A program made the translations under genes and the position numbers. From Lysobacter sp. cf310 (GTDB taxonomy: Bacteria; Pseudomonadota; Gammaproteobacteria; Xanthomonadales; Xanthomonadaceae): a stretch of DNA of 64,000 nt. This document shows, one piece after another, positions 1 through 19,650 of this stretch. The notes beneath the pieces are model-generated. The model worked only from the letters and a program-made list of their open reading frames with translations. It ran no database searches and was not told where the DNA came from. The stretch spans positions 307,215 to 371,214 of the forward strand of contig NZ_FOSS01000003.1 in assembly GCF_900114355.1 (NCBI RefSeq), read 5' to 3'. How positions within the stretch are numbered: the first letter of the stretch is position 1; each line of letters opens with the position of its first letter.

Positions 1-620
1 CCGTTGCTGGACTGCATGAAGGTCGTGGCCGAGCCGCGCCGGCCGCTGCCGACGTAGTTGGTGCTCACGCTCTCCAGCGGCACCCAGACCGGGCCGTCCT
101 GCAGCAGGTCGTAACCTTCGACCCAGGCGATGGGCTGGTCCGCGCGCGGCGCGCTGTCCTCGTAATGGCTCAGCCGTTCGTACTGCACGATGGGCGCCCT
201 GCGACGCAAGGACCAGGGCGAGTCCACGTACACCGGCCGTTCGATGGTTTCCGCGTGCCAGCACTCCACCGACTCCATCAGCGCCGAGGCCTTGGCCGCG
301 GCATGGGTCAGGCCCTTGCCCTGCGCGGTGGCCAGGCCACGCGAATTCGGCCGGATCGCCACCCAGACCGGCACCCCGATCACGTCCAGCCCGGTGACGT
401 TCGCCAACCGGGTCAGGCCGATACGCGGCGCCAGCGCCTGCAGCCGCCGCACCGTGTCCTCGGGATCGCAGGCGCGTTGGGTACCGTCCCAGAACGACTT
501 CATCAGCCGCAGCTCCTCGCCGAACACGCGGATCGGCGCGACCGCCGACTCGCCTGCGCCACGAGCTTCAGGATCGGTTGCGGTCGCCGGCAGTGCGGTC
601 TGGTCCATACGCTGTTCCAT
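1..620 (-). CDS. YcaO-family protein, partial (C-terminus beyond left edge), TfuA-partner type
   Basis: Reading frame of 206 codons from ATG at 620, still open at base 1. YcaO enzymes use ATP to activate backbone amides, giving azolines or, with TfuA, thioamides. Diagnostic stretches are TGLDVIGVPVWVAIRPNSR (about residues 77-95), then AQGKGLTHAAAKASALMESVE (about 99-119), and near the edge TFMQSSNG, the start of the nucleotide-binding SSNG.A.G block. The RPNSR...QGKG...AKASALMESVE pattern is the one I associate with TfuA-linked YcaO proteins rather than azole-forming ones; this is recall, not a search. It follows the ABC ATPase gene by 14 bp and is probably in the same operon. A start at 608 (second Met) is possible. 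A TfuA gene, if present, would lie to the left of the window. Confidence 0.85.
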   Translation of the reverse strand, partial: MEQRMDQTALPATATDPEARGAGESAVAPIRVFGEELRLMKSFWDGTQRACDPEDTVRRLQALAPRIGLTRLANVTGLDVIGVPVWVAIRPNSRGLATAQGKGLTHAAAKASALMESVECWHAETIERPVYVDSPWSLRRRAPIVQYERLSHYEDSAPRADQPIAWVEGYDLLQDGPVWVPLESVSTNYVGSGRRGSATTFMQSSN

Positions 621-634
621 GCGGACGGGAACCC

Positions 635-1333
635 TCAAGCCGCGGCCAAGGCCATATCGACGAAGCGCCCCTTGTCCAGCTGCATGCCCAGCGTGGCATA
701 GCCGGCCGCACGCTGATCGTGGGTGACCATGACCACGGTCTTGCCGAGTTCGCGGTTGAGGTCGCGCAGCAAGTCCAGCACTTCGCTGGCCACCGCGCGG
801 TCCAGGTTGCCGGTGGGCTCGTCGCACAGCAGCACCGGTGCGTCGCCAACGATCGCCCGCGCGATGGCCACGCGTTGCTGCTCACCGCCCGACAGCTGGC
901 TGGGCATGTGCCGGGCGCGATGCGACAGGCCGACCAGATCCAGCGCCGACGCGACCCGGCGCTTGCGCTCGGCCGAGGTCATGCGCATCAGCGACAGCGG
1001 CAGGGACACGTTTTGCTCGGCGCTGAGCATGGGCAGCAGGTTGTAGGACTGGAACACGAAGCCGACGTTGCGGGCGCGCCAACGCGCCATGCTGGCTTGC
1101 GGCATATCGTCGATGCGCTTCCCGTCGAACAGGACCTGACCGGATGACGGCCTGTCCACGCCCGCGAGCAGATTGAGCAAGGTGGTCTTTCCCGAACCGG
1201 AGGGCCCCATCAGCGCCAAGAACAATCCGGCCGGGATGTCCATGTTCAGATCGTCGAATATGGTCGTCGAATCGGCCCCGCGCTGGTAGATCTTCGATAC
1301 GGACACGAGTTTGAATCCATTGTTGTTGCCCAT
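635..1333 (-). CDS. ABC transporter ATP-binding protein, MacB/LolD type
   Basis: A 232-residue ATPase that would power a tripartite efflux or lipoprotein-type ABC system. Walker A is GPSGSGKTT (about residues 43-51), the Q-loop is [10 protein letters not shown], the signature is LSGGEQQR and Walker B with its D-loop is [12 protein letters not shown]; the H-loop is MVTHD. I chose ATG at 1333 because GGAG lies six bases before it; an upstream ATG at 1345 and TTG at 1348 are weaker. It follows the HlyD-like gene and two FtsX-like permease genes in the same direction. The four together resemble a split MacAB system, so export of the cluster product or self-protection is the likely job (inference). 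Confidence 0.9.
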
Positions 1334-1354
1334 GATCTGCTCCATCAAATCCGT

Positions 1355-2428
1355 TTACATGAAATCCACGTTCGCGCGCATGCCCGGCAACGCCCCCGGA
1401 TTCCGTCCGATAATGGCGACCTGCACCTGCAGCGTTCCCTTCGCCCGATCCGCGCTGGGCACGATCCGCTGCACGCGCCCCTTCATTTGGGTTCGTTCGT
1501 CCGAGTACAGCCGGAAGTTCACCGACTGTCCGACCTTCACATGCTGGATCTGCTGCTCGCCGACATCGACCACCAGGATCAGCGAATTCATATCGACGAT
1601 GGTGCAGATACCGGTTCGGGTGAAGCTGCCGCCAGCGCTCATCGGAGCGACCAGTTCGCCCACCTGCGAGTTCCTCTCGACCACGATTCCGGAGAACGGC
1701 GCCCGGATGGTGTAATTGCCCAGCAAGCTGCGCTGTTGCCGGACCCGGACCTCGCCCACATCGAGTTCGGCCATCGTGCTGGCCACCGCGGTGCGCGCAA
1801 CGATGCTCGCAGCGCTTTTCTCGTCGACGCGCGCGCGCGACGTGTAATTGCTTTTCTCCAGGAGCAACTCGCGCTGATACTCGCTTTCCGCCTGAGCCTG
1901 CCTGGCGCGATCGCGCGCCACCTGCGAGCGCAGCGACGACAACTCCTTCTCGGCGAGCTGCAGGTCCTGCTCGGCCAGATCCGAATTGAGCACGCCGACG
2001 ATCTGGCCACGCTCTACATAGTCGCCGACGTCCACCGGCACCTCGGTGACGATGCCGGCCACCCGCGTGGACACGGTGGCCTGGCGCATAGCGACCACGA
2101 AGCCCTGCGCCTGCAACTGCACGCCGCCATCGCCCGCCGCGACCACCGGCGCTGCGCCCGCCGATTTGGCTGCCGCGCCGGAAGCCGTCGCGCCGGCAGC
2201 AGCCGGCGCCGCGGTTTCCGGCTTCGCGCCGGCACCGAAGATCATGAAGTAGGCGAATAGCAGTGTCTGCGCCACCAGTACGCACAACAACACGAATACG
2301 ATTCGCGACGGTCGCCCGCTCCGCGCCGGCGCGGACTCCTCGCGAACCAGAGAAAGGCCGCGAATCTTCTCGATCCTGGCCTTCGCAGCGCCATCCATCT
2401 TTTCCATGTCGGATTCAGCTGTATTCAT
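1355..2428 (-). CDS. HlyD/MacA-type periplasmic adaptor subunit
   Basis: A 357-residue membrane-fusion protein that would link an inner-membrane ABC transporter to an outer-membrane channel. It has a cytoplasmic N-terminus, one membrane anchor (IVFVLLCVLVAQTLLFAYFMIF, about residues 44-65) and an Ala-rich linker. A biotinyl-lipoyl-like half follows (GIVTEVPVDVGDYVERGQIVGVL), then a coiled-coil hairpin rich in Glu/Arg and the returning lipoyl half (TIRAPFSGIVVERNSQVGELV). A beta-barrel region forms the C-terminus. It sits 5 bp after the permease gene, in the efflux operon of the RiPP cluster. The domain order is clear; the substrate is not shown by the sequence. Confidence 0.9.
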   Translation of the reverse strand: MNTAESDMEKMDGAAKARIEKIRGLSLVREESAPARSGRPSRIVFVLLCVLVAQTLLFAYFMIFGAGAKPETAAPAAAGATASGAAAKSAGAAPVVAAGDGGVQLQAQGFVVAMRQATVSTRVAGIVTEVPVDVGDYVERGQIVGVLNSDLAEQDLQLAEKELSSLRSQVARDRARQAQAESEYQRELLLEKSNYTSRARVDEKSAASIVARTAVASTMAELDVGEVRVRQQRSLLGNYTIRAPFSGIVVERNSQVGELVAPMSAGGSFTRTGICTIVDMNSLILVVDVGEQQIQHVKVGQSVNFRLYSDERTQMKGRVQRIVPSADRAKGTLQVQVAIIGRNPGALPGMRANVDFM

Positions 2429-2433
2429 GAGAT

Positions 2434-3666
2434 TCAGGCCGATTTGATCTTACGGTAACTGGGAATTGCCAGACTGGAGAGCGCGCCGCCGACCAGGCCC
2501 ACCGCTATGGCCAGCCCCATTGCATTGAGCAGCACGGTCCAATCGACCTGCAAGGTGTAATCGATGGTGGTGTAGTACTTGCCGACGATGGAGGCCGCGC
2601 GTCCGTCCAAGAACAGATACATCAGCAGCGTCCCCAGCAAGGCCCCCGTCATGGTCAGCAGCAAGGTTTCAAGCAGCACGGTCATTCGGATCGCGGCGGG
2701 CGAAAAACCCAGCATCAGCAGCACGCTCAGATTGCGTCGCCGGCCCTCGATAACCATCAGCATGGTATTAAGCACGCCGGCGAAGGTGCCGATTGACAAT
2801 ACGAATGCCAAGGGCCAGCCCAGATAACGGATGATCTTGCTGGTGTCCTCGACCTGATCCCGATACAGGTCGCGCTGAGTGAGCACATCGACCTGGAATC
2901 GCGGGTCCGCTTCTACGAAGGCGCGCAGGTCTTCCACTGAGTCGCCCGGCTTGAGCCAGGCGTAGATCGACTGGAACTGATTCTGACGGTCGAAGGCCGC
3001 TTGCACGGATTGAACGTCCGCGTAGTACTCGTTCTCCAACAGACTGTTGGACATCTTGAACACGCCCACGACCGTCCAGGTCTTCCCGCTCAACGCGATC
3101 TGGTGCCCCACCTCCAGCCCGATCACTCTCTGAGCGAGCTGGCGGCCCACGATAATCTCGTACATGCCGGAACGGAACGGGCGACCCTCGACCAGCTCGA
3201 ACCCTTGATGCTCCCGCAGCCGCAGCCCCTCAGGGCGCATTCCGCGCAAGGTCGAGTTGATTCGTTTGGTGAGATCCTTGGCTCTACGGCTGACCGAAAC
3301 AACCACTTCGGGCGACACCTTGGAGGTTTCGCTAAGCCGCGACAGTCCCGGCGCGCCCTCCAGCAGCACCGCCTCGGCCGGGTCGATGTCGCTTTCGACT
3401 TCGATGGGCGCCTGCCGCCCAAGCATGACGGCCATCCGATCAGAGCCGGCGCTCTCGCCAGCCGCGTAGAACCCGCGCGCCATGGCCAGAAACGTACTGA
3501 GAACGGCCACGGCCAGCACCACGCAGGCGATCGTCGTCGCGCTGGCCCAGCGCGCCCGGAACGCGTTGCCGATCGCGACCGGTATCAATGTGATGAACTG
3601 CGAGATCGTGCCGGCATGCTCGGCGCCCGCGCGCGCTGCGCCCGTGGACGGATGGATGTCGCTCAT
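2434..3666 (-). CDS. ABC transporter permease, FtsX/MacB-like (second of pair)
   Basis: A 410-residue permease with the FtsX/MacB layout: one N-terminal membrane helix (TTIACVVLAVAVLSTFLAMA, about residues 44-63), a large periplasmic domain, then three C-terminal helices. The helices include PLAFVLSIGTFAGVLNTMLMV and a segment near residue 325 onward. Its start codon overlaps the stop of the preceding permease in an ATGA, so the two are translated together and probably form a heterodimer. It belongs with the ATPase at 635-1333 and the adaptor at 1355-2428. Family assignment is firm; transport of the modified peptide is inferred from position only. Confidence 0.85.
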   Translation of the reverse strand: MSDIHPSTGAARAGAEHAGTISQFITLIPVAIGNAFRARWASATTIACVVLAVAVLSTFLAMARGFYAAGESAGSDRMAVMLGRQAPIEVESDIDPAEAVLLEGAPGLSRLSETSKVSPEVVVSVSRRAKDLTKRINSTLRGMRPEGLRLREHQGFELVEGRPFRSGMYEIIVGRQLAQRVIGLEVGHQIALSGKTWTVVGVFKMSNSLLENEYYADVQSVQAAFDRQNQFQSIYAWLKPGDSVEDLRAFVEADPRFQVDVLTQRDLYRDQVEDTSKIIRYLGWPLAFVLSIGTFAGVLNTMLMVIEGRRRNLSVLLMLGFSPAAIRMTVLLETLLLTMTGALLGTLLMYLFLDGRAASIVGKYYTTIDYTLQVDWTVLLNAMGLAIAVGLVGGALSSLAIPSYRKIKSA

Positions 3667-4826
3667 ATCGCCTCCTCCGCCATCGCCTCAACAGGCTTGG
3701 TGCGCAACGCGATGAACGCGGGAATGGCCGCGGCGGCCAAACTAAGGAGCACGCCGATTGCCAGCGCTTGCATCATCACCGGGATCGGCAGAGACATATG
3801 CGGAAGAATTTCGGGATACCTTGAGGTAATCGCCCAGTTGAATACGAAAGCGATGAGCATCCCCAGCGCGGCTCCGACCAGAACCACCATCATCGTCTGA
3901 CCTACTACGATGCGCAGGATCTTGGCGTTCGAATAGCCTATAACGCGCAGGATGCCCAGATCCCGTCTGCGTTGGCGTATGCCCAAAGCCATGCCGCTGC
4001 TGACTATGAGCATCAGGGTCCCGAACGTGACGGCGACCACCAGCTCTATCATGGACACGACATCGCCGAACTGAGCGAAGAATTCGTTATGAAACACCTG
4101 GTCCGAGCTGGTGTATGAAGGCCAAGCGCTGGTCTCCAGAGCCGCGTCGATGCGTTGCGACGCATCGTCGGCAGTCACTTTCGCGTCCAAGGTCACCACG
4201 AAGCTTCCGACGGTGTCCTTCCAGAAATTACGGTTCTCGTTGAGATAGTCGTAGTGAGTGACGGCATAATTCCGGCTGCCCGCGCCCTTTTCCGAACGAA
4301 ACACGCCGGCGACGATGTAGTTCCAGGCGGACTCCCCTTGCGGCGGCTTGAACAAGAGACTATGCAAGGGCACCGAATCGCCCTTCTTCCACCCGAACTT
4401 ATCGGCTATATCGGTGCTGACCAGTATCGCGCGGCGGTCTTTGAGAAACGCCTGCTTGGTCGACTCGTCCATCGCCATATCCGGATGCGTGTCGATCCAG
4501 GTCTTCGGGTCGACCGCGAAGCTCATGAACATGTTCGACTGTTCACGGTAGTACAGTCCGATCCAGGTGGCATAACTGACCGTCCGCAGCCCCTCGACCT
4601 TGCTGATCGCGTCCATCGAGGACAAGGGCAACACCTGCATCGCACCGGCAGCGCTGGTCACCATCAAGCGACGCGACGCGATGGATTGGTCGCCGCCGTT
4701 CATCGAGTACCTCAAGGCACCTAGGATACCGAAGGTACAAAACGCCAGGGCGACCGCCCCGGTGAGCAATAGGGAGCGCAACCGGAAAAACCGGTGGTAC
4801 CGCCAAATCAGATTCATATCGTTCAT
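3663..4826 (-). CDS. ABC transporter permease, FtsX/MacB-like (first of pair)
   Basis: A 387-residue permease with an N-terminal helix (SLLLTGAVALAFCTFGILGAL, about residues 16-36), a periplasmic domain of roughly 230 residues and three C-terminal helices. These include FGTLMLIVSSGMALGIRQRRRDLGILRVIGYS, where the Arg-rich loop after the helix is typical of FtsX-like permeases. The ATG at 4826 overlaps the stop of the upstream pyridine-synthase-like gene (ATGA), which ties the exporter to the RiPP enzymes. It is only distantly similar to the next permease, consistent with a heteromeric pair. Confidence 0.85.
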   Translation of the reverse strand: MNDMNLIWRYHRFFRLRSLLLTGAVALAFCTFGILGALRYSMNGGDQSIASRRLMVTSAAGAMQVLPLSSMDAISKVEGLRTVSYATWIGLYYREQSNMFMSFAVDPKTWIDTHPDMAMDESTKQAFLKDRRAILVSTDIADKFGWKKGDSVPLHSLLFKPPQGESAWNYIVAGVFRSEKGAGSRNYAVTHYDYLNENRNFWKDTVGSFVVTLDAKVTADDASQRIDAALETSAWPSYTSSDQVFHNEFFAQFGDVVSMIELVVAVTFGTLMLIVSSGMALGIRQRRRDLGILRVIGYSNAKILRIVVGQTMMVVLVGAALGMLIAFVFNWAITSRYPEILPHMSLPIPVMMQALAIGVLLSLAAAAIPAFIALRTKPVEAMAEEAI

Positions 4827-5794
4827 GCCATGGCCCCCTGTCGCTTCAAAGCATTCGCGGCGCCTGCCAGGATCCGGGCCAGAAGGAATTCGCCCGCGGG
4901 AGGGATGCCCAATCGGTTGTTCAGCATGTGGATCTGCGACCCGACGATCGCCAGCACCGCGTTCTTGCACATGTCGTCGCCAACAGTCCTACCCCCTTCG
5001 TAAGGTGCGCTCAACCGCCCCTGCTGGTGCAACGACCTCAGGCGTTGGGCCAACTGCCGGACGCCGGCGGCCCAAACGGCATGGGCGCTGCGCTCGTTCC
5101 AGCCAGCCAGCGCCTCCTGCTCCAGCCGGAGCAGCAGCTTGAGCTGGTCTTCGCTCGGCTGCGGAAGCTCCGTACCCAGGGCCTCGTGACCGGTCATCGA
5201 GGCCCATAGCGAACCGTATCGCCTGAAGTAGTTGGCAAGGCCGGGCAGGTCCTCGTCGCAGGCGAGAATCGCCGCTGCCATCAGCGCGAATGCCGACGAC
5301 AGACGACCGCTTCCGTTTCCCTGCGTCGCTTTGCACAGACTCAGCGCCAACCGCGACGACAGCTCGAACAGTTGCTCGTTGAACTCTATGGCGTCCTCTC
5401 CGCCGTAACGCAGGATCTCCGGCTCGTAGCCGATCTTGGCCACGGTGCCCTCTGTGTACCAGGGCAAATCCTCGACCACGACCGGAGCGCCATCGAAGGC
5501 ATGCGAGCGGTAATACTCCTCCCGTGTTGGCGGCTTGTCCGAGCGGAATTCCGCGATGCGCTCGGACAACACCTGTATCGCCCGTTCTTCGTCCTGGACG
5601 ATACGGCCGCACAGGCGGATGCGTAGGTGCGGCCCACCCTCCCAGTAGCGAATGAAGAACCAGCGGTCCAAGTCCCCGTTCGCGCGCCATTTCTGGATCG
5701 CCGAATCCAAAGATTCGCGCACGTAGCGCTCGACCCGCTCCGGATCGGAGAGGAATACGTGTATCGAAAGCCAATCATGGCGCGGGTGACTCAT
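4823..5794 (-). CDS. Stand-alone SpaB_C-type protein; probable thiopeptide [4+2] cycloaddition enzyme (pyridine synthase)
   Basis: A 323-residue protein of the thiopeptide-type bacteriocin biosynthesis domain family. The N-terminus WLSIHVFLSDPERVERYVRE and the stretch RWFFIRYWEGGPHLRIRL (about residues 44-61) are typical of this fold. Homologues such as TclM, TbtD and LazC join two dehydroalanines into the central pyridine and expel the leader. Because this cluster also has a LanB with its own C-terminal SpaB_C domain for glutamate elimination, the separate copy is best read as the pyridine synthase. Its ATG at 5794 shares one base with the stop of the dehydrogenase gene (TGATG). The alternative is a second elimination domain, as in goadsporin-like pathways. 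Confidence 0.75.
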   Translation of the reverse strand: MSHPRHDWLSIHVFLSDPERVERYVRESLDSAIQKWRANGDLDRWFFIRYWEGGPHLRIRLCGRIVQDEERAIQVLSERIAEFRSDKPPTREEYYRSHAFDGAPVVVEDLPWYTEGTVAKIGYEPEILRYGGEDAIEFNEQLFELSSRLALSLCKATQGNGSGRLSSAFALMAAAILACDEDLPGLANYFRRYGSLWASMTGHEALGTELPQPSEDQLKLLLRLEQEALAGWNERSAHAVWAAGVRQLAQRLRSLHQQGRLSAPYEGGRTVGDDMCKNAVLAIVGSQIHMLNNRLGIPPAGEFLLARILAGAANALKRQGAMA

Positions 5795-9266: not shown

Positions 9267-11077
9267 CACGAAGCGCTCGCCATCGCTTTCAAGCTGGCAT
9301 AGCCGCAGTACACCGAAGGGGGTAGTCCGGGCGCCGTCAGCAAGTGGTACTCGACTTCCCGGCTTGTGGCCGCTTGCGCGGCGATCAAGGCTTGGTGCCA
9401 ATCCTCGGCCTGTGCCGCGTCATCCGGCTCAGGCAGAGCCAGACCCGTGTCGAACCGAATCCCGTTCAGCTCCTGAAGTTGGAACATGCTGCAAGCTCTA
9501 CCCAAGCCCTCGGTCAACGCCTCGACAGGATCCGAGGCGACGACGCTGCAGAGCGTGGCCCCCGCACGCGACACGCGCACTATGAAGGCATCACCGGCGT
9601 CGCCCCATTGGATCTGGGCGCGAATGCCGTCAGGCGAGTGGAATCGCAATAGCGCGTGCAGGACGCGAGCCGGACCCGGCGGCAATCGATCTAGGTCGAC
9701 CCATGCCCAATGGTGGCGCTGCCTCATTTCGTTCGAGCCCGCCACGGCATAGGCGAGCGCCCGCCGTTTCCAGACCTCTTCGTCGAACGCGCATACGACA
9801 GCGGCGTCATCCTTGCGGAAACTGCGCGCCAGAATCCCGATCGCCTGTGACAGGCCGTCGACTACAGCCTCAGCGTGCTCCAATCCCCAGCCGACGACGA
9901 TCTCTTCCTTTCCGGCTTCGGACGCCGATCTGATCCCTACTGGATACTGCAACAAAGGCACCTGCTCGATCTGATCGTCCGCGACGATGCTGAAAGGCCC
10001 CAGCAGCGGATCGAACCACGGCTCCAACGCGTACTTGATCCGTTCGAACGGCAGCAGGACCCGCCCTTCCGGCATCTGGTACTTGGAAGGGTGCACGAAC
10101 GGCACCGGCGCGCCCTCGCCTCTGGCCGAGGCGACCAGCATGCGGTACTCGACTTCCAGTTCCGGCGAAACCACCGCCACCTGACCTCCCGACGTTGCCG
10201 CTTCCACGCCGAAGAATCTGCAAATTGCGGCTTGCGCCGCGACGCAACCCAGCAGCGCCATCGCTATCGGCCCGAGCGAGGCAGCGTCGGCGCCCCGCCC
10301 GGGCAGCCAATGCAGCAGGTCCGCGACGGCTGGATGCCCAGGCCTCGAGGCCGGCAGGACGCAGGCGTAGCCTTCGAGGACGGCACCGATCGAACCCGCG
10401 ATGGCGTGCTCCCGCATGGCCTTCTCGACCCGAACGATCGATGCCAAGTCCGCGCTATCGCTCGCGTAGACCAGCATTCCCGCCGTGTCGATGGGCACCT
10501 CATCGCCCAATCCCCGCCGAAGGGCGAATCGCACCGCATGTTCGGCCTCCACTTCAGTCCGAAGTTCATTCAACCCTTCGGTTTCGGCGCCATCGAGTAT
10601 CACCGTAAGCTTCGCGCATCCGCTGTCGGTCAATGCCCTCAACGCCGACAACAGCGACTGCCCGGACCCGATCACGATGACTTGTGCGTCGTGCCAACGG
10701 CGCAGTTCCGCCTCGACGGACCTACCATCGAGCCTGTCCTCAAGGAACTTGCGCAACTCGTTGGCGCCGGTATGCGCAACCAAGCCCTGCGCCGGCGGCG
10801 CATCCGCGTCCACCGCCAACAGCATGCCGTGCTCGGTTAGCGATGCGATAACCTTGCGGAAGAACTCGGCGAGCTTATCCGGGGCACGCTCAAGAATGCT
10901 TTCCACCGGGTTTCCGGCATCGATCAACGCGATCAGCTTCTGAACTATCGGGTACGCCGATTTGTCCTTCAGCACGAAGGAAGTGTCCCCGGCGTCGAAC
11001 AATATGCCGTCAGAAACGACACCGAAGTAGACGTGATTCTTGAGCTTGACACGGCTTCCGGCAATCGTCGCGTTCAT
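9266..11077 (-). CDS. E1-like (ocin-ThiF) leader-peptide-binding partner of the cyclodehydratase
   Basis: A 603-residue protein of the F/C-protein class that binds the precursor leader through an N-terminal RRE and delivers it to YcaO. The N-terminus (HVYFGVVSDGILFDAGDTSF then a helical stretch to about residue 85) looks like the winged-helix RRE. A Rossmann strand follows at about residues 132-165 (VIVIGSGQSLLSALRAL, TVILDGAE). The adenylation and Cys zinc motifs of true E1 enzymes are absent, as is normal for this class. The ATG at 11077 overlaps the LanB stop (ATGA), which fixes the start against a longer frame. It is the main specificity determinant for the leader at 16636-16821 (inference). 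Confidence 0.85.
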   Translation of the reverse strand: MNATIAGSRVKLKNHVYFGVVSDGILFDAGDTSFVLKDKSAYPIVQKLIALIDAGNPVESILERAPDKLAEFFRKVIASLTEHGMLLAVDADAPPAQGLVAHTGANELRKFLEDRLDGRSVEAELRRWHDAQVIVIGSGQSLLSALRALTDSGCAKLTVILDGAETEGLNELRTEVEAEHAVRFALRRGLGDEVPIDTAGMLVYASDSADLASIVRVEKAMREHAIAGSIGAVLEGYACVLPASRPGHPAVADLLHWLPGRGADAASLGPIAMALLGCVAAQAAICRFFGVEAATSGGQVAVVSPELEVEYRMLVASARGEGAPVPFVHPSKYQMPEGRVLLPFERIKYALEPWFDPLLGPFSIVADDQIEQVPLLQYPVGIRSASEAGKEEIVVGWGLEHAEAVVDGLSQAIGILARSFRKDDAAVVCAFDEEVWKRRALAYAVAGSNEMRQRHHWAWVDLDRLPPGPARVLHALLRFHSPDGIRAQIQWGDAGDAFIVRVSRAGATLCSVVASDPVEALTEGLGRACSMFQLQELNGIRFDTGLALPEPDDAAQAEDWHQALIAAQAATSREVEYHLLTAPGLPPSVYCGYASLKAMASAS

Positions 11078-14000
11078 TGCCCGGACTCCTCCATGGCACG
11101 GATGCGCGCGACTTTCTCTCGCGAGTCCTGCCCGTACACTCGTTCCACCGAGTTCGACAATAGATGGCAAAGCAGGAACTTCTGGATGGGAGCAATCTCC
11201 AGCAACGGAAGCAATGCATAGAAGAAATTGACATTGATCCGATACGCCAGGAATCCCGGCCTCCGCAGCACTTCGCCCCCCGACTTCGTATTGATGAAAG
11301 CCGCGCCGATCTCGGATATCTGACGCTTTTCGGCCCTTTCGAAGAACTCGTCGGGCACGTCCTGACGCATCTGCGTCGCCATTTCGATGAACTGGTCGCC
11401 CTGACCGACCACCTCGTCGTACCGCAGCTCGACGATGCGCTTGCTCCGAATATCCACATCGGCCAGCACCTTCGTCCACCGCTCTAGAATCTCGACGAAA
11501 GGCCCCGGCAGACCGGTGTCGGCGTATCTGCCGTCCACCACGGCGCGAGTGGCTTTATCGAGCTTCTCCTTGTTCTTTTCATCGACTTTGTCGAACCTGT
11601 CGCGCAGGGCATTGTCGGAGTCGTAAGCGGCGAAGAAGTAGTCGGCATGCGAACGCATCGACATGTACCCTTCCTGGAGCCCCGATTTCTGCGTGTGCGC
11701 AGTTGCCGCCAGCATCGCGTGAAGGGTGATGAAGAAAGATTCGCGATCCACATCGTTGAGGCGATTAAGCTCAAGAATAAGATCGCAGCAATCGCTCAGC
11801 ATGAGCTCCTTACTTTCGGCAACCTCCGGAATCAGCAAGGTCTTGGGCCTCAGGTACGGGACCGGAGCGACCGAGTTGTCCTTGAGCAGCGGCAGGTAGG
11901 GACCGCTATCTATTTCGGATGTGCCTATCCATTGCGAGGTCTTCTCGTACTCCAATGGATCCAATTGCGCACGACTCGGATTCTCAGCGATCCACTTCTC
12001 TATGATCGCCTGCACCGCAGGCAAGACGCGCAGCGCATAGGACTCGGAATCGCATTGCAACAACAGATCGATATGCGGGCCGAATTTCCAGTGCGGGAGG
12101 AAGAACGCTCGCTCGACTCCGAAGTCGCGCTTCGCCGTTTCGATCGCCTCCGCAATGGGACCGAGAATCAGTTGGCGGCGATCGTCGAAGTACGCGACCC
12201 GGAGCGCATACCACCGCAGATCCGCCGACTGAAGCCGGTCAGACTTACTGGTGAGCTCGAAGTGCAGCTCGGATACGTGAGTCTCGTCGTCGACGGACGA
12301 CGCATGATCTTCGAAATCGGGAAGCAATTCGGAGATCTGCAGCGCAAGATCGTGCCGCTTTAGCATGTTCTGCAGCAGCCGGACAAACCTGGGATTGCGC
12401 AGGTCAACGTAAAACGGCTTGAGATCCTTGAAATTGAGTCCTTTCATCGCGGAAAAACGCGAAATACGCGTCTTCTCCCCCGACCCGCCAAGAATCGCGC
12501 GAACAAAGAAGCGCTCCGGCAACCCGTGCGCCTTCTGCCAGTCTCTTATGGCCAAATAGAACTGCGCCGGAGGCAGCGACGCGTCCGGGCAGGTTGAGTG
12601 CGCCACGGTCCAGGAGCGTCGCGAAACGACGATATTTCCGAGCGTGAGCCGCGGCGTGTACTGCACATCGCTTCCGCCCGAATCCGCCACTCGGGCCATA
12701 GCGTTCGCCACAAGAAAGCACGGCCCCTCGCTGAAGGCCAATGCGATCGTGCGCTGCACCGCTGGCAACATCACAGGGGTAAGCAACCCGTGATACCAAA
12801 TGTCGACGATCTTGCCGTCGCCACCGCGAAACACGAGACGGTGTTCGTTCGGAACGTATACCAAACTCAGCTCCGCCAGAGAAACCTTGCGCGTCTGATC
12901 GTAAGACGGCCCGAAAGGCGGTACGACGACTTCCACGTCTGACATGGACGGGTGCCGATTCGCATTGAATCCGAAAACGCCGCCCAACTCAGCATTGTGG
13001 CCGGCCTCGGAGCCCTTCTGCAGGTATGCACGTACCTGCGCCATGCCGTCCTGGTCGAGAACTTCGCAAAACCTGGAGAGAATCCCCGAGCGACCGCCGT
13101 AGATCTGGTTCAACACCAGACCCTCGGCGTCGTCGCTCTTGAACGGCTGGACGAGGTAGCTGTAGGAGAGGCTTCGGCTCCGCATGCCCTGCGGCAGCAT
13201 CGCGACGATTCCGCGTAAGGCTTCCGGATCCAACTGGATGTCGCGTCCTTGGCCGAGCTGCTGCTTTAGGTAATCCTCGAACGCGCGTTTGGCGCGGAGC
13301 AGCGCGAGAGTGCGCGGAGAATTCTCGGCAACGCCCTCCGCGTCGGCCTTTCCTTCCGAAACCAGCGGAGCGTAGGCGAGATCGAACTCCTCGATGAGCG
13401 TGGCGATATCGGTACAAACGCCATCCTCGCCAAATCTGGAAACGAAGTAATCGCACAGACTGGTATGGACCAGCCGATTGGCGTCGATGATGCCGTTGAC
13501 CTGCTGAATAAGGTCGAACTCTTCTCGATGCGCGTCGATCAAACCCAGCGAGAGATCTTGATCGTCGCCGGTGTAGTAGCAGTTTTCGTAGTATGGCGTG
13601 CGATAAAGGTAACCACCGATTCTCGCACCGGCTGCCGCAGCCATATCGAAGATCGTCGAATCCAGATTCGAACTCGCCACGATTCTTTGATCTACGTCGT
13701 TACCTCTCATCACCTCAAGACCAGCTCGCATACGCGAAACGGCCGCGCGGAAATCGCCGTCGATCTCGTCACCGAGTTCGGCCCCGATATCGGCCATCCA
13801 CTCCAGCGTGTCGGTTTGCTCGACGTATCCCGTCTGCGCCAACAAGTAGCCGATCTCGTACAGCTTCTTTACATAGGCTTCGACGGCCACTTGGGGCAAC
13901 TTGGGCGCCAGTGCGCATATCCGATCGACCAAACTCTCGATCGGCAGCGACGCATCGGGCGCGTCTTCCAGGGCGCGCCGGACACAGGCGAACATCGGGC

Positions 14001-14928
14001 TCGCATCGACACTAGAAACATCGACGCCGGTCCCCCAGATGCGCCCGATGAAGTCGCGTCCTGCGGACACCACCTGCAATTTCAGCTTGCCATCGGCCTC
14101 CAGAACCGTCGGATTCAGCTTGAGCGGAAAAACCCTGCTCACCGTTTCGTAGTTGCGCATCCAACCGTCAAGAATATGTCGCATCAACGCGGCTTTGGCC
14201 TCGACGCGTCTTTCCACCCGGTTCGTGAGCCGGCTGACCCTTGCGCCATCGTCGTCTTGCCAATGCCCGACGCGCATCAGCGTAAACGACGACAAAGGAC
14301 TGGTCTTGGTAGACGCCCGGCCGAAGAACTGCAGCAGAGAATCCTCCAGATTCCGCACGGTTTTGCTGTCTGACGACGGAGCGGCCTGGCCGTAATGACT
14401 CTTCAGCTGCGCCAGCAGCCGATGATTGTTGTAGCTCAAGGCCAACTGCAGATTCTTCGAATCCAGCAATGCATGAATGGACCGAGCCCCTTCGGCCATC
14501 TCGTGACCGAAGACGTCCGGGAACTCCCTCAGTGCGGCCGCATAGGCCACGTGGACTTGATCCAATTCGAGGATGCGCCCGGTTAGCGCCGCATCCGCAC
14601 AGGTTCGAAGCGCTTCGAGTTCCGCGGCCTTCGCCGGGCGTCCGTTATGCAACGCGCGCCTAAGGTCCAGTAGGCGCCGGCGGCCGGCGACATCAAGGAC
14701 CTGGGGCACCCTTTGAGCCAGCTCATCGCACAACTGCGTGGATAAGGACGAGGAGAGCTCGCGCAATTCGACTAGACGTCGCCACATCTCATCGGATTTG
14801 CCGGTCCATATAGCCGACAGCTTCGATGCGGGCTCGCCGGCCACCCGCAGCACATAGTGCGGGTGCACCAACATCGAGGCCGCGTCCGCGGTCGGTCCGC
14901 CGATTGAAACCAATACTCTTTCGTCCAT
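11074..14928 (-). CDS. Full-length LanB-type dehydratase: tRNA-Glu glutamylation plus elimination domains
   Basis: A 1284-residue class I dehydratase that would glutamylate Ser residues of the precursor with Glu-tRNA and then eliminate glutamate to leave dehydroalanine. The N-terminal domain contains the LanB hallmark TKTSPLSSF (about residues 207-215), later SRRSW and FYVDLRNP. From about residue 915 a SpaB_C elimination domain begins (RWYALRVAYFDDRRQLI, FFLPHWKFGPHIDLLL). Most thiopeptide clusters split these two activities between proteins; here they are fused as in lanthipeptide LanB enzymes, and the protein is longer than NisB (~1000 residues). It lies 8 bp after the ABC-2 permease and is coupled to the E1-like gene downstream. 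Confidence 0.92.
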   Translation of the reverse strand: MDERVLVSIGGPTADAASMLVHPHYVLRVAGEPASKLSAIWTGKSDEMWRRLVELRELSSSLSTQLCDELAQRVPQVLDVAGRRRLLDLRRALHNGRPAKAAELEALRTCADAALTGRILELDQVHVAYAAALREFPDVFGHEMAEGARSIHALLDSKNLQLALSYNNHRLLAQLKSHYGQAAPSSDSKTVRNLEDSLLQFFGRASTKTSPLSSFTLMRVGHWQDDDGARVSRLTNRVERRVEAKAALMRHILDGWMRNYETVSRVFPLKLNPTVLEADGKLKLQVVSAGRDFIGRIWGTGVDVSSVDASPMFACVRRALEDAPDASLPIESLVDRICALAPKLPQVAVEAYVKKLYEIGYLLAQTGYVEQTDTLEWMADIGAELGDEIDGDFRAAVSRMRAGLEVMRGNDVDQRIVASSNLDSTIFDMAAAAGARIGGYLYRTPYYENCYYTGDDQDLSLGLIDAHREEFDLIQQVNGIIDANRLVHTSLCDYFVSRFGEDGVCTDIATLIEEFDLAYAPLVSEGKADAEGVAENSPRTLALLRAKRAFEDYLKQQLGQGRDIQLDPEALRGIVAMLPQGMRSRSLSYSYLVQPFKSDDAEGLVLNQIYGGRSGILSRFCEVLDQDGMAQVRAYLQKGSEAGHNAELGGVFGFNANRHPSMSDVEVVVPPFGPSYDQTRKVSLAELSLVYVPNEHRLVFRGGDGKIVDIWYHGLLTPVMLPAVQRTIALAFSEGPCFLVANAMARVADSGGSDVQYTPRLTLGNIVVSRRSWTVAHSTCPDASLPPAQFYLAIRDWQKAHGLPERFFVRAILGGSGEKTRISRFSAMKGLNFKDLKPFYVDLRNPRFVRLLQNMLKRHDLALQISELLPDFEDHASSVDDETHVSELHFELTSKSDRLQSADLRWYALRVAYFDDRRQLILGPIAEAIETAKRDFGVERAFFLPHWKFGPHIDLLLQCDSESYALRVLPAVQAIIEKWIAENPSRAQLDPLEYEKTSQWIGTSEIDSGPYLPLLKDNSVAPVPYLRPKTLLIPEVAESKELMLSDCCDLILELNRLNDVDRESFFITLHAMLAATAHTQKSGLQEGYMSMRSHADYFFAAYDSDNALRDRFDKVDEKNKEKLDKATRAVVDGRYADTGLPGPFVEILERWTKVLADVDIRSKRIVELRYDEVVGQGDQFIEMATQMRQDVPDEFFERAEKRQISEIGAAFINTKSGGEVLRRPGFLAYRINVNFFYALLPLLEIAPIQKFLLCHLLSNSVERVYGQDSREKVARIRAMEESGQ

Positions 14929-14936
14929 ATCGATCG

Positions 14937-15692
14937 TCAGCGATAGCTATTGCGGAAGATCACGGCGGACGCGAAAGCGCAAGCCGCTCCGAAGACCAGC
15001 AGTACCGCCGTCGGAAAAACTGCTGCCCGCGTAAAATACGCGTTGTCCCATGCAAGATGGGATATCTGCACCGCGTAGGTAGTAGGCACGAAGTCGGAGA
15101 TCGCTTGAGCCCATTCGGGGAAACTTTCGCGCGGCATGCCGCCCCCTGAAAGAATCAGCATGGGCTGCATGAAGAACATCCCGGCGGAGAATGCCCTCTG
15201 CGGCACGGGAAACAAAACCCCTATCAGTATCCCTGCCGGCAGCATCGCGAAACCGGTCACGAGCATCGGAAGAATCAGTTGGATCGGATTGGCGGCAGGC
15301 AGGTAGCCGAAGAGCATGAAGCCGGCCACGAGCATTACGGCATAGCCGACAGCGAACAGCACCATGGCGCGCAGGCAGAAGCTGACCCAAAGCTCATAGA
15401 CTTTGACCGGAGTCACCATCAGGCGATTCAAGAAGCCCATGTGCTTCGCCATCGCGACCGTAGGCGCGACGTTCAGGAATGAGATCATCAGGATGAGCAC
15501 CGCCGTGAAATTCGGAGTGTGCGTGTTGTAGTACTTCAACGATGCCGCTTCCGACGCCGTCGCGCCGGCGAAGGATGCGAAGAAGATGTAGAAGCCGACC
15601 GGAAACACCAGCAGGAAGAATATCGCGGTCTTGTCCCGCGACGTGTTCTTGAAGTCGAGCGCCGTCAGCGCATACACGTTCGCGGCCTTCAT
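14937..15692 (-). CDS. ABC-2 type transporter permease
   Basis: A 251-residue integral membrane protein with about six hydrophobic segments, starting with TAIFFLLVFPVGFYIFFASFA (about residues 22-42) and ending near SAVIFRNSYR. The arrangement and the short GGGMPRESFPEWAQAISDFVPTTYAV stretch before the last helices are typical of ABC-2 drug or antibiotic exporters. Its ATG overlaps the stop of the ATPase gene (ATGA), giving a two-gene exporter placed directly after the precursor gene. Export of the mature peptide or immunity is the likely role. It is a different family from the MacB-like exporter at 635-4826. Confidence 0.88.
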   Translation of the reverse strand: MKAANVYALTALDFKNTSRDKTAIFFLLVFPVGFYIFFASFAGATASEAASLKYYNTHTPNFTAVLILMISFLNVAPTVAMAKHMGFLNRLMVTPVKVYELWVSFCLRAMVLFAVGYAVMLVAGFMLFGYLPAANPIQLILPMLVTGFAMLPAGILIGVLFPVPQRAFSAGMFFMQPMLILSGGGMPRESFPEWAQAISDFVPTTYAVQISHLAWDNAYFTRAAVFPTAVLLVFGAACAFASAVIFRNSYR

Positions 15693-16495
15693 GCGCCACC
15701 TCCAACGGACTTGCTCACAATGATGTTGTAGGCGTCGTCCAGATTCCTCGCGTCGCCGCCCGCCATGGACACCAACTGCGCGACGCCGCCTTGCGCAACG
15801 ATACGACCGCCCGAAAGCATGACCACTCGCGACGCTAGCGCTTCCGCCTCCTCCATGTGGTGCGTACTGAACAACAGCGTTTTACGCCCATTGGCGTGAG
15901 CCTTACGGATGATGTTCCAGAACTCGCGCCGCATGATCGGGTCCAGCCCAACGGTCGGTTCGTCGAGAATGACGAACTCCGGGTCGTTGATCATCGCCAA
16001 GGCGAGCGCGATTCTTTGCCGCTCACCGCCGGAGATCTTGCTCAGAGGCCTGTCTACGAACTTCTTAAGTTCGAACTCCTCCAGCATCACATCGATGCTT
16101 AGGCAATTCGGATAGACGCGCTCAAAAAAACGGATGTAGTCGCGACCGGTCAAGCTTCCGAAGAACTTGGTTTGTTGAATCTGGACGCCTATGCGCGAAA
16201 CGTAGCTACGATCGAACGCCGGGTCGCAGTTCAGCACCGAGACCGAACCCTCGTCGGCCCGACGCAAGCCCATCATGATTTCGAGCATGGTGGTCTTTCC
16301 GGCCCCATTAGGACCGACCAGCGCGACGATCTCGCCGACCGGTATCTCGAACGAGACCCGATCCAACGCTTTCCGGTGCGCATACATCTTCGTTACGCCG
16401 CCGAACGCGACGATCGCACCACGGCTCGGAGAACCGTCCGCCATTTCGGTCGTTGCGGCACCGATATCAGCCGCAATTGAATACTCGGTTTGCAT
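15689..16495 (-). CDS. ABC-2 type transporter ATP-binding protein
   Basis: A 268-residue ATPase with Walker A GPNGAGKTT, signature ISGGERQR, Walker B and D-loop FVILDEPTVGLDP and H-loop LLFSTHHMEEAE. The EEAEALASRVVMLSGGRI tail is usual for drug-export ATPases of the CcmA/DrrA group. I prefer ATG at 16495 because GGAG lies six bases upstream; an in-frame ATG at 16624 would add 43 residues of low-complexity sequence and lacks a convincing ribosome site. It pairs with the permease at 14937-15692 and follows the precursor gene by about 140 bp. Confidence 0.9.
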   Translation of the reverse strand: MQTEYSIAADIGAATTEMADGSPSRGAIVAFGGVTKMYAHRKALDRVSFEIPVGEIVALVGPNGAGKTTMLEIMMGLRRADEGSVSVLNCDPAFDRSYVSRIGVQIQQTKFFGSLTGRDYIRFFERVYPNCLSIDVMLEEFELKKFVDRPLSKISGGERQRIALALAMINDPEFVILDEPTVGLDPIMRREFWNIIRKAHANGRKTLLFSTHHMEEAEALASRVVMLSGGRIVAQGGVAQLVSMAGGDARNLDDAYNIIVSKSVGGGA

Positions 16496-16635
16496 TGATG
16501 GCTCCAGAATTCCGGACGACTCGAGATCGGACACACCGGCGCAGAACGCCGATGTGTCCAATCGTCTGATCGATGCCGCGCTGCACCCCGATTCGCGAAC
16601 TAGCCGGACTATCAGCGACGACATCTATCCGACTT

Positions 16636-16821
16636 TTACTCCGCGATATTGTCGTTAGCGCACGACGAAGAACCGCAGCTCGAACACGAGTTGCTGGAGC
16701 TGACGACGCTGGACGCGCCGGTTTCCGGCAGAGCCATCGCTTCCTTGAGCGTCACGACTTCCATGCCTTCGATGTTCAGGCTGGCCAGATCCAACGAGTC
16801 GAAATCGAAATCGCTATTCAT
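16636..16821 (-). CDS. Thiopeptide/pyritide precursor peptide
   Basis: A 61-residue peptide with an acidic leader (MNSDFDFDSLDLASLNIEG, then MEVVTLKEAMALPETGA ending at residue 36) and a Ser/Cys-rich core from Ser37. The ALPETGA|S junction and the repeated D-L spacing closely resemble thiopeptide leaders such as that of lactazole (ALPENGA|S). The core has eleven Ser, three Cys (46, 49, 54), two Val, one Gly and a polar tail ANDNIAE. Ser53-Cys54 fits the Dha-thiazole unit required for pyridine formation. The start at 16821 is fixed by AAGGAG eight bases upstream; the stop is TAA. It lies immediately before the exporter and LanB genes. It is short and easily missed; a longer frame starting at 16899 is not supported. 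Confidence 0.88.
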   Translation of the reverse strand: MNSDFDFDSLDLASLNIEGMEVVTLKEAMALPETGASSVVSSSNSCSSCGSSSCANDNIAE

Positions 16822-16989
16822 GACTACATCTCCTTGCGAAATATCCACTACCTTGTGGACCAACATTGGGTGGAGTGGAGGCACCCAATTCCTTGACATG
16901 GCTCCTTGCGTTGTCGGCGCTTTCTATCTGTTTGAAGCCGTCTGCCTGCGGGCGCGCGTGGCGCGGCGGCGTCGCATGCCGGCGGCTTC
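16822..16989 (-). promoter_or_regulatory. Leader region of the precursor gene
   Basis: A 168-bp gap between the DUF2141 gene and the precursor gene. It holds the strong AAGGAG ribosome site at about 16830-16835. The rest of the gap is where a promoter for the precursor would sit, but I cannot name a convincing -35/-10 pair. A separate promoter would allow the precursor to be made in excess over the enzymes. Confidence 0.3.
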
Positions 16990-17514
16990 TTAGATCGAGT
17001 AGCGTATTCGGACGCGAATCCGGGTCGCGCCGTTCACCTTGATGCGAGATGCGTCGAACTGGGGTGCAGTCTTCGCCAGGTTGGCGTTGTTGCTGAAGCC
17101 GACGCCTTCCGTGCCCAACTCGAGCTGGGAGTTGCCGTTCTCGTCGTGATAGAGCGCCACCGCGTAGTCGCCTTGCGCCAGGCCCTTGAAGTCCAAAGAC
17201 ACCACGCCGTCAGCCGCCTTCGCGCGCGCCCGGCGCGTGCAGCCGGAAGGGAACGCTTCACCTTCCTTGCACAAGGTACCGATGATGTATCCGTGATCGC
17301 CGCGCACGCCGCTGACGTCGACGCGCAGCGCGCCGCTCTGCCCCGGCTGCGCCGCGACCGACGCCGGCTTTCCGGGGTCGCGCGCGTTCCGCATGCCGTC
17401 GCCGGCCCCGCCCTTCGATATTTGCCACGCCCCCCAGAGCAACGCGACTGCGATCACCGAGCCGATCGCGACCCGCGCGACCTGCGACCTCACATACGAT
17501 CTTCCAGTTTCCAA
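16990..17514 (-). CDS. DUF2141 family exported protein
   Basis: A 174-residue protein with an N-terminal membrane or signal segment (VAIGSVIAVALLWGAWQI, about residues 15-32) and a DUF2141 beta-sandwich. Recognisable parts are GYIIGTLCKEGEAFPSGC, GLAQGDYAVALYHDENGN and ELGTEGVGFSNNA. The biochemical role of DUF2141 is unknown. The best start is TTG at 17514 with AGGGAAG about six bases upstream; GTG at 17493 is an alternative. A 20-bp tandem duplication covers this ribosome site and start. It sits between a SagB-type dehydrogenase gene and the precursor gene; whether it takes part in the pathway is open. Confidence 0.75.
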   Translation of the reverse strand: METGRSYVRSQVARVAIGSVIAVALLWGAWQISKGGAGDGMRNARDPGKPASVAAQPGQSGALRVDVSGVRGDHGYIIGTLCKEGEAFPSGCTRRARAKAADGVVSLDFKGLAQGDYAVALYHDENGNSQLELGTEGVGFSNNANLAKTAPQFDASRIKVNGATRIRVRIRYSI

Positions 17515-17551
17515 GACACTTCCCTATCTGACAAGACACTTCCCTATCTGA
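17512..17551. repeat. Perfect 20-bp tandem duplication over a translation start
   Basis: Two adjacent identical copies of a 20-bp unit (17512-17531 and 17532-17551). Read on the minus strand each copy contains AGGGAAGTGTCTTG, that is, a ribosome site and a TTG. The second TTG (17514) opens the DUF2141 gene; the first (17534) is in another frame. Confidence 0.9.
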
Positions 17552-17586
17552 CCGGACGGGCTTCAGCTCGTCGCATTCCCGTTCGA

Positions 17587-19648: not shown

Positions 19649-19650
19649 CG

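What the first reader, a model, noticed from the sequence alone, without database searches (positions are those of the whole stretch)
1..16821. Apparent thiopeptide/pyritide gene cluster in a Lysobacter-like gammaproteobacterium
The minus-strand block holds a precursor with an ALPETGA|S junction and a Ser/Cys core, an RRE/E1-like partner, an azole YcaO, a dehydrogenase, a LanB and a separate SpaB_C-type protein. These are the enzymes required for azole, dehydroalanine and central pyridine formation. Thiopeptides are characterised mainly from Actinobacteria and Firmicutes. A Gram-negative source would face an outer membrane for export, which fits the extra MacB-like four-gene exporter here.
Basis: partly seen in the sequence, partly recalled or inferred. 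Interest (0 to 1): 0.92.

Follow-up and report, generated by a model that had tools for sequence, protein, structure and literature searches.

The report
Gram-negative thiopeptide cluster with fused enzyme
A Lysobacter-like bacterium carries genes that look able to make a thiopeptide, an antibiotic class known mostly from Gram-positive bacteria, with two of the key enzymes joined into one protein and an apparent supply line for adding an extra sulphur.

Summary
The 323-residue protein (4823-5794) looks like the glutamate-elimination enzyme: it keeps all five NisB elimination residues and groups with elimination domains. The pyridine synthase is the C-terminal ~390 residues of the 1284-residue LanB (11074-14928), fused to a TbtB-like glutamylation domain. 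It matches TbtD/PbtD by profile (2.6e-42), by predicted fold (top 12 Foldseek hits) and at the residue altered in PbtD variants (Tyr293, here Tyr1237). The same fusion occurs in five other genomes found (Massilia, Glaciecola, Bowmanella, Aquimonas, one congener); in Teredinibacter, Sphingomonas and the Gram-positive clusters where a D gene was recognised, the two are separate genes. Seven related clusters share a near-identical core, SSxxSxxxSCS[ST]CGS[ST]S. The cluster extends beyond the window: a second YcaO plus TfuA (thioamide formation) and a ThiS/MoaD-like sulphur carrier with an E1-rhodanese. In five genomes the carrier is fused in frame to its E1, with a JAMM protease; in two it is free and no JAMM was found nearby. 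Best reading: a thioamide-bearing, pyridine-type thiopeptide family of Gram-negative bacteria. No product is demonstrated.

The parts
16636..16821 (-). Precursor peptide, 61 aa: leader ...EVVTLKEAMALPETGA, core SSVVSSSNSCSSCGSSSCANDNIAE
   Evidence: Pfam PF19409 48.0 bits over cut-off 23.5; NF033400 49.9 over 30; near-identical leader ends and cores in seven genomes
15689..16624 (-). ABC-2 type exporter ATPase
   Evidence: PF00005 3.5e-29; next to the precursor in relatives
14937..15692 (-). ABC-2 type exporter permease
   Evidence: PF01061 5.7e-19
12250..14928 (-). LanB residues 1-893: tRNA-Glu-dependent glutamylation domain (TbtB-like)
   Evidence: phmmer to PDB 6ec7 (deposited name: lantibiotic dehydratase domain protein; TbtB by recall) 4.4e-25 and to goadsporin biosynthetic protein 9jhq 1.1e-12
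11074..12249 (-). LanB residues 894-1284: pyridine synthase ([4+2] aza-cyclase, TbtD/PbtD-like) fused in the same polypeptide
   Evidence: NF045556 2.6e-57, 194.6 bits, below the equivalog cut-off of 325; profile to TbtD 2.6e-42; Foldseek top 12 hits all TbtD/PbtD; Y1237 aligns with PbtD Y293
9266..11077 (-). E1-like/leader-binding partner of the azole cyclodehydratase
   Evidence: TIGR03693 6.8e-7, below cut-off; conserved in the relatives; no PDB match by profile
7269..9401 (-). Azole-forming YcaO with N-terminal TOMM leader-binding/E1-like region (start codon uncertain)
   Evidence: TIGR03604 268.5 bits over 219.25, TIGR03882 67.7 over 36.9
5794..7272 (-). Nitroreductase-type azoline dehydrogenase
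   Evidence: PF00881 in 5 of 5 aligned homologues; profile to PDB 3eo7 9.4e-11
4823..5794 (-). 323-aa stand-alone glutamate elimination enzyme, not a pyridine synthase
   Evidence: PF14028 5e-42, TIGR03891 106 bits over 48.45; all five NisB elimination residues conserved; groups with elimination domains
3663..4830 (-). FtsX/LolCE-type permease of the MacB-like exporter (start uncertain)
   Evidence: TIGR02212 5.1e-14, below cut-off
2434..3666 (-). FtsX/MacB_PCD permease
   Evidence: PF12704 3.7e-18, PF02687 1.7e-10
1355..2428 (-). Periplasmic adaptor (membrane fusion protein)
   Evidence: TIGR01730 109.3 bits over 94.9
635..1348 (-). MacB/LolD-type ATPase
   Evidence: PF00005 5.8e-37
1..638 (-). 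N-terminal part of the second, thioamide-type YcaO (start uncertain); the gene continues off the left edge and is followed by tfuA (G000:C3:305109-306491)
   Evidence: TIGR03266 (McrA-glycine thioamidation YcaO) 238.9 bits, below its cut-off of 365; PF02624 2.3e-78; TfuA PF07812 152.6 bits over 30
16990..17514 (-). DUF2141 protein, conserved close to the precursor; role unknown
   Evidence: PF09912 2.5e-21; present in G015, Aquimonas, Massilia, Glaciecola, Bowmanella and Teredinibacter
17587..18534 (-). SagB-type dehydrogenase; membership of the cluster uncertain
   Evidence: TIGR03605 133 bits over 78.4; close orthologue (86%) only in G015 among the 19 other congeners, paralogues of 29-33% identity in 20 of 20
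18461..19648 (-). MoeZ-like E1 (ThiF) with C-terminal rhodanese: would activate and sulphurate the carrier
   Evidence: PF00899 1.1e-81, PF00581 5.2e-18
19651..19971 (-). ThiS/MoaD-like sulphur carrier, free C-terminal ...IAGG
   Evidence: PF02597 6.5e-12; in 7 of 7 cluster genomes and in the genus only in the 2 of 20 with the cluster

Best explanation
This is a thiopeptide (pyridine-macrocycle RiPP) cluster of a family found in Gram-negative bacteria. Proposed order of events: (1) the leader is bound by the E1-like partner and YcaO, and core Cys and some Ser become azolines, which the 492-residue dehydrogenase oxidises to azoles. (2) The N-terminal domain of the 1284-residue LanB glutamylates core Ser with Glu-tRNA. 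(3) The separate 323-residue enzyme eliminates glutamate to give dehydroalanines. (4) The C-terminal domain of the same LanB polypeptide performs the formal [4+2] cycloaddition between Dha1 (or Dha2) and a downstream Dha, most likely Dha11, the only invariant Ser preceded by Cys, closing the macrocycle and ejecting the leader. (5) The second YcaO with TfuA replaces one or more backbone carbonyl oxygens by sulphur. The sulphur would come from a dedicated ThiS-like carrier thiocarboxylated by the E1-rhodanese; where that carrier is fused to the E1, a JAMM protease would free its Gly-Gly end. (6) The product leaves through the ABC-2 pump and the MacB-like trans-envelope set. Shown here: gene content, homology, key residues, predicted fold of the D domain, conservation across genomes. 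Inferred: the chemistry, its order, which Ser pair forms the ring, the thioamide and its site, sulphur flow, transport.
For: Precursor over curated thiopeptide cut-offs. LanB C-domain: NF045556 2.6e-57; phmmer TbtD 1.2e-23 and PbtD 1.5e-17, only TbtD and PbtD chains listed at E up to 0.001; profile 2.6e-42 to TbtD; AlphaFold2 model pLDDT 84.3 with Foldseek ranks 1-12 all TbtD/PbtD, target TM 0.74-0.83, class I dehydratases far lower. PbtD residue 293, altered in PDB entries 8ejz and 8ejy, aligns with Y1237; 10 of 11 D-type domains have Tyr there (Phe in Clavibacter) and 12 of 12 elimination-type have His. Tree of 23 domains: the two types are separated by a 100/100 branch, the window LanB C-domain on the D side and the 323-residue protein on the elimination side. 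Separate D gene in Teredinibacter with its own start and a ribosome-binding-like sequence. TfuA in 6 of 6 related genomes searched; sulphur carrier in 7 of 7; JAMM with 5 of 5 fused carriers and none found in the fetched surroundings of 2 of 2 free carriers. Core residues S1, S2, S5, S9, C10, S11, C13, G14, S15, S17 invariant in 7 of 7.
Against: No product or activity is known. The D domain misses the NF045556 equivalog cut-off (194.6 against 325 bits). TfuA, second YcaO and carrier fall below the NCBIfam equivalog cut-offs, though over Pfam gathering scores. In Massilia the TfuA/carrier half lies on a different contig from the LanB half. In the window genome the carrier and MoeZ sit at the other end of the cluster from TfuA, beyond DUF2141 and SagB. 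The low GC of the cluster (62.3%) does not extend to the left end holding the second YcaO and TfuA (68.2%, as in the flanks). Position 2 is Ser and positions 3-4 are Gly or aliphatic, so the usual azole beside the first pyridine Ser is not obvious.
Confidence: 0.7

Rival explanations
1. One reading: a full LanB dehydratase (glutamylation plus elimination in one protein) with the 323-residue protein as the pyridine synthase.
For: The 323-residue protein has a weak NF045556 match (1.8e-10), and its family profile also matches PbtD weakly (1.3e-4).
Against: The 323-residue protein has all five NisB elimination residues and groups with elimination domains; the window LanB C-domain lacks these residues and groups with TbtD/PbtD.
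Confidence: 0.02
2. A linear azole- and dehydroalanine-containing peptide (goadsporin-like): the D domain is degenerate and no pyridine ring forms.
For: The LanB N-domain also resembles a goadsporin protein (9jhq 1.1e-12); the D domain is below the equivalog cut-off.
Against: The D domain keeps the fold and the key Tyr and is an intact domain or gene in the seven close relatives (window included), Sphingomonas and Metabacillus; the precursor is of the thiopeptide family.
Confidence: 0.08
3. Pyridine macrocycle as proposed, but the carrier/E1/JAMM set serves cysteine or another sulphur metabolite, or the YcaO/TfuA pair acts on another peptide, so the product has no thioamide.
For: ThiS-like carriers with JAMM proteases are known in other sulphur pathways (recalled); in the window genome the carrier genes lie away from tfuA, and the tfuA end has the GC content of the flanks.
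Against: The carrier occurs in 7 of 7 cluster genomes, and in the genus only in the two genomes with the cluster; in four relatives it lies, with the JAMM gene, between macB and the second YcaO; no second precursor was seen in the few hundred bases downstream of tfuA in G000 and G015 (by eye).
Confidence: 0.2

Closest known systems
Thiomuracin (tbt) and GE2270 (pbt) clusters
   Same: TbtB-like glutamylation, TbtC-like elimination, TbtD/PbtD-like cyclase, azole YcaO, dehydrogenase...GA|S precursor (cluster content recalled; homology to TbtD/PbtD tested)
   Different: B and D are separate proteins there (6ec7 and 5wa3 are separate PDB chains); no second YcaO/TfuA/sulphur carrier in those clusters as recalled; Actinobacterial
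Lactazole (laz) cluster, PMC7210931 (passages read)
   Same: Similar enzyme set; azole(n-1)-Dha(n) recognition around the diene; an enzyme fusion is present
   Different: LazF fuses elimination with dehydrogenase, whereas here glutamylation is fused with the cyclase and elimination is alone
Pyritides (mro), PMC9247985 (passages read)
   Same: Same B, C, D enzyme logic with two Dha residues and leader-amide release
   Different: MroB/MroC act without prior azoles; this cluster has azole YcaO and dehydrogenase
Thioamide-forming YcaO-TfuA pairs (PMC8120280, passages read; TfuA/ThiS chemistry recalled, paper not held)
   Same: YcaO plus TfuA; that paper already reports many such clusters in Proteobacteria (70% of its 2,326 filtered clusters); here a ThiS-like carrier as well
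   Different: Here the pair sits with a thiopeptide enzyme set, with carrier and E1-rhodanese (and in five relatives JAMM) alongside, in those five with carrier and E1 in one reading frame

Membership tests
Thiopeptide/pyritide RiPP class | Thiopeptide-type precursor | tested here: met
   PF19409 and NF033400 over curated cut-offs; NF033399 and TIGR03892 below theirs (22.6 against 29, 22 against 25)
Thiopeptide/pyritide RiPP class | [4+2] pyridine synthase of the TbtD/PbtD type | tested here: met
   Profile, predicted fold, tree and key Tyr; but below the NF045556 equivalog cut-off
Thiopeptide/pyritide RiPP class | Split glutamylation/elimination dehydratase | tested here: met
   TbtB-like N-domain; NisB elimination residues in the separate 323-aa protein
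Thiopeptide/pyritide RiPP class | Azole cyclodehydratase and dehydrogenase (thiopeptides, not pyritides) | tested here: met
   TIGR03604 over cut-off; nitroreductase match in 5 of 5 homologues, the window member itself below the gathering score
Thiopeptide/pyritide RiPP class | Six-membered nitrogen heterocycle in the product | not testable with these tools
   No product data
NCBIfam NF045556 equivalog (TbtD/PbtD pyridine synthase) | Score over 325 bits | tested here: not met
   194.6 bits; filed as a homologue with a different domain setting, not as the equivalog
Thioamidated RiPP (YcaO-TfuA) | Adjacent YcaO and TfuA genes | tested here: met
   L003 15109-18041; TfuA in the window genome and in 6 of 6 related genomes searched
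Thioamidated RiPP (YcaO-TfuA) | Thioamide in the product | not testable with these tools
   No product data
Class I lanthipeptide (full LanB) | Elimination residues in the LanB C-domain | tested here: not met
   Positions equivalent to NisB R784, R786, E823, R826, H961 are D, L, P, L, Y in the window LanB

The most novel reading that the evidence does not exclude
A family of Gram-negative thioamidated thiopeptides made by a bifunctional glutamylase-cyclase, in which one protein both primes and closes the ring while elimination happens on a separate enzyme in between. It is fed by a dedicated ubiquitin-like sulphur carrier that in five of seven clusters is made as a domain in front of its own activating enzyme and must be cut free after Gly-Gly by a cluster-encoded JAMM protease.
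Probability: 0.55. Interest if true: 0.85.

Novelty: new variant of a known kind. Interest (0 to 1): 0.74.

Why it matters
It gives a concrete, conserved candidate for thiopeptides from Gram-negative bacteria, which must export past an outer membrane. The natural glutamylase-cyclase fusion, with split relatives for comparison, offers a way to ask how the order of dehydration and ring closure is enforced. The carrier/E1/JAMM set tied to YcaO-TfuA makes the sulphur source for peptide thioamides directly testable in a bacterium. The near-invariant core in distantly related genera suggests a single conserved target or function.

Tried and rejected
I first suspected that carrier, MoeZ and SagB were housekeeping neighbours; the carrier turned out to be confined to the two cluster-bearing congeners, and the close SagB orthologue likewise, with distant paralogues in 20 of 20; MoeZ was not surveyed in the genus. 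A single-protein scan of genome contigs found nothing; the three-sequence alignment found eight loci. That scan used two short peptide patterns and can miss members, so the family may be larger than counted. One search matched 4 of 198 family genomes; one (G176, 23% identity, LanB residues 189-893 only) is a different cluster at a contig end and was dropped from the family. Loci L028 and L029 (Bacillota) and L027 (Sphingomonas, 6.7 kb contig) are more distant relatives; TfuA, carrier and JAMM were not sought in their genomes. JAMM was sought only in the window and fetched stretches, not genome-wide. A second precursor downstream of tfuA was looked for by eye over a few hundred bases in G000 and G015 only. 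Alignment A3 had wrong coordinates for one row and was replaced by A4. The structure of the 323-residue protein was never obtained. A profile of the E1-like partner found no PDB match. Literature: ten searches of an open-licence library; no listing or passage I saw describes a proteobacterial pyridine synthase or a glutamylase-cyclase fusion, but most listed papers were not opened. I saw passages of PMC7210931, PMC9247985, PMC8120280, PMC7136475 and PMC9576775 and the abstract and outline of PMC10676384. Key papers (thiopeptide genome mining 2018, TbtD/PbtD structures 2017, TfuA function 2021) are not held, so absence from print is not established.


Full report
WHAT IS THERE. The window is G000:C3:307215-371214 of a 4.7 Mb genome. 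Aquimonas voraii, whose locus contains the very sequences fetched from genome G067, lies in the same family. All genes of interest are on the minus strand. In order from the precursor: precursor (16639-16821), ABC-2 ATPase and permease, a 1284-residue LanB, an E1-like protein, an azole YcaO, a nitroreductase-like protein, a 323-residue Lant_dehydr_C protein, two FtsX-type permeases, an adaptor and a MacB/LolD-type ATPase, then a second YcaO that crosses the window's left edge and a TfuA gene outside it. On the other side of the precursor lie a DUF2141 protein, a SagB-type dehydrogenase, a MoeZ-like E1-rhodanese and a ThiS/MoaD-like carrier ending in Gly-Gly. GC content is 62.3% over window 1-20000 against 68.4% over 20001-64000, which suggests acquisition by transfer; but the TfuA/second-YcaO end (L003 15101-19000) has 68.2%, like the flank, so the whole need not have come as one piece.

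THE TWO DEHYDRATASE-TYPE PROTEINS ARE SWAPPED. NCBIfam gives the 323-residue protein TIGR03891 (106 bits, cut-off 48.45) and only a weak pyridine-synthase match (1.8e-10), while LanB residues 905-1273 match the TbtD/PbtD model at 2.6e-57 (194.6 bits, below its equivalog cut-off of 325). By phmmer against PDB sequences, LanB residues 564-874 match 6ec7 (TbtB by recall; deposited as lantibiotic dehydratase domain protein) and residues 901-1274 match TbtD and PbtD, while the 323-residue protein matches 5ehk (MibB) and, weakly, 7cww and NisB. A profile of eight D-type domains finds TbtD (2.6e-42) and PbtD and no elimination domain; its one other hit up to E 0.1 is an unrelated chain at 0.055. A profile of seven elimination-type proteins finds NisB, 5ehk, 9g04 (MadB) and 7cww first, and PbtD/TbtD more weakly at 1.3e-4 to 8e-4.

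RESIDUES AND FOLD. In one search the NisB residues at chain positions 784, 786, 823, 826 and 961 (the elimination residues by recall) align with R58, R60, E126, R129 and H289 of the 323-residue protein. In the 23-domain alignment 12 of 12 elimination-type rows keep R58, R60, E126 and H289, and 10 of 12 keep R129 (Lys in Lactobacillus and one Streptomyces). The fused window domain has D, L, P, L, Y there. D-type rows are not free of such residues at every site: one Streptomyces D gene has Arg at the first and Bowmanella at the second. The His column of elimination domains is the Tyr column of D domains: Tyr in 10 of 11 D rows, Phe in Clavibacter, His in 12 of 12 elimination rows. That Tyr is PbtD residue 293: the alignments to wild type and to the two variant chains, whose entry titles say Y293F and F293A, differ exactly there. 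A maximum-likelihood tree separates 11 D-type from 12 elimination-type domains by a 100/100 branch; several end branches are long, and the fused rows as a group have modest support (76/52), so one origin of the fusion is not shown. The labels of reference rows rest on NCBI annotation for one Streptomyces D gene and on my reading of tblastn results for the rest. The predicted D domain (pLDDT 84.3) has TbtD/PbtD as its 12 best PDB matches, 7cww next, and MadB, MibB and NisB behind. The fold of the 323-residue protein could not be predicted.

DISTRIBUTION OF THE FUSION. LanB relatives: 4 of 198 family genomes, three of them true members; 2 of 20 in the genus. A pattern scan of the species-genome collection gave eight loci with a LanB relative out of 71 pattern matches. 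Fused in one frame (1276-1285 residues): Massilia arenosa, Glaciecola sp. MH2013, Bowmanella dokdonensis and Aquimonas voraii; with the window genome and G015 that makes six genomes. Separate genes: Teredinibacter waterburyi (902 residues, stop, then a D gene with its own start) and Sphingomonas oligophenolica; in the Bacillota locus L028 glutamylation, elimination and D are three frames; L029 is a 3 kb contig in which no D was recognised. Of five plasmid records opened, Clavibacter and Streptomyces NBC_01471 have a separate D gene; in Streptomyces NBC_00316 and Lactobacillus glutamylation and elimination are separate and no D gene was recognised; the fifth has no annotation and was not analysed. 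In an order of Bacillota 6 of 397 genomes (the starting one included) match the D profile, in frames of 146-393 residues, two of them with stops inside and one (298 residues, matching profile positions 8-101 only) perhaps an elimination protein. The D domain is rare in Pseudomonadota: 1 of 398 genomes in the phylum sample, 1 of 369 in the class sample and 1 of 295 in the order of Glaciecola, each time only the genome the search was centred on.

THE CORE. Seven precursors (window, G015, Massilia, Glaciecola, Bowmanella, Aquimonas, Teredinibacter) share 81.5% mean identity over core positions 1-18 (21 pairs, lowest 61%), although their LanB proteins are 32-73% identical to the window's. Invariant in 7 of 7: S1, S2, S5, S9, C10, S11, C13, G14, S15, S17. 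Lactazole work suggests that the cyclase's minimal motif may be an azole directly before the diene Dha (PMC7210931, passages). The only invariant Ser preceded by Cys is S11; S12 is Thr in Aquimonas. I therefore predict S1 (or S2) with S11, which by recalled ring-size rules gives a 29-membered ring for S1. This is inference. Sphingomonas has a different core and was left out of these counts.

THE SULPHUR BRANCH. TfuA is found once in each of six related genomes searched (G015, Aquimonas, Massilia, Glaciecola, Bowmanella, Teredinibacter) and in the window genome. In Massilia it lies on a separate 13 kb contig that also carries adaptor, ATPase, JAMM, carrier and second YcaO; the LanB locus ends inside the dehydrogenase gene, so one cluster cut by assembly is likely but not shown. 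The carrier is present in 7 of 7 cluster genomes and in only 2 of 20 congeners, the same two that have LanB. In five genomes the ThiS domain is followed in frame, after ...GG, by rhodanese and ThiF domains, with a JAMM-type protease gene beside it in four and a JAMM domain in the same frame in Teredinibacter. In the window genome and G015 the carrier is free with Gly-Gly at its end, and no JAMM relative was found by tblastn in the window or in L003, L009, L010 and L041; the rest of those genomes was not searched for it. This co-variation suggests that the JAMM enzyme frees the carrier. That TfuA takes sulphur from thiocarboxylated ThiS in a methanogen is recalled; the paper is not held. YcaO-TfuA clusters as such are already reported to be common in Proteobacteria (PMC8120280, passages), so that part is not new.

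VERDICT. What is new, within what I could search, is the glutamylase-cyclase fusion, the coherent Gram-negative family with a near-invariant core, and the linked sulphur-carrier set. Whether any of this is already in print could not be settled, because the main thiopeptide mining paper is not held.

Noticed in passing
L040:12416-14401 (Teredinibacter waterburyi): One 661-residue frame holds JAMM, ThiS-like carrier, rhodanese and ThiF (E1) domains in a row: protease, carrier and activating enzyme apparently in a single polypeptide.
   Followed up: partly
window 16990-17514: A DUF2141 protein lies close to the precursor in the window genome and the six relatives examined; it could be a periplasmic binding or immunity protein (guess).
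   Followed up: partly
L014 (G176 contig end, 1-11049): A different cluster in another family member: YcaO, SagB-type and LanB-like genes at a contig end, 24-32% identical to the window proteins.
   Followed up: no
window 21685-23085 +: Trypsin-like peptidase gene to the right of the cluster; the end of a very similar gene lies just beyond tfuA, on the other side, in G015 (L009 1579-1773), so the surroundings of the cluster differ between the two genomes.
   Followed up: no
L015:8095-9798 (Clavibacter plasmid): A frame matching both the elimination protein and the SagB-type dehydrogenase, a LazF-like fusion in a plasmid-borne thiopeptide-type cluster.
   Followed up: no
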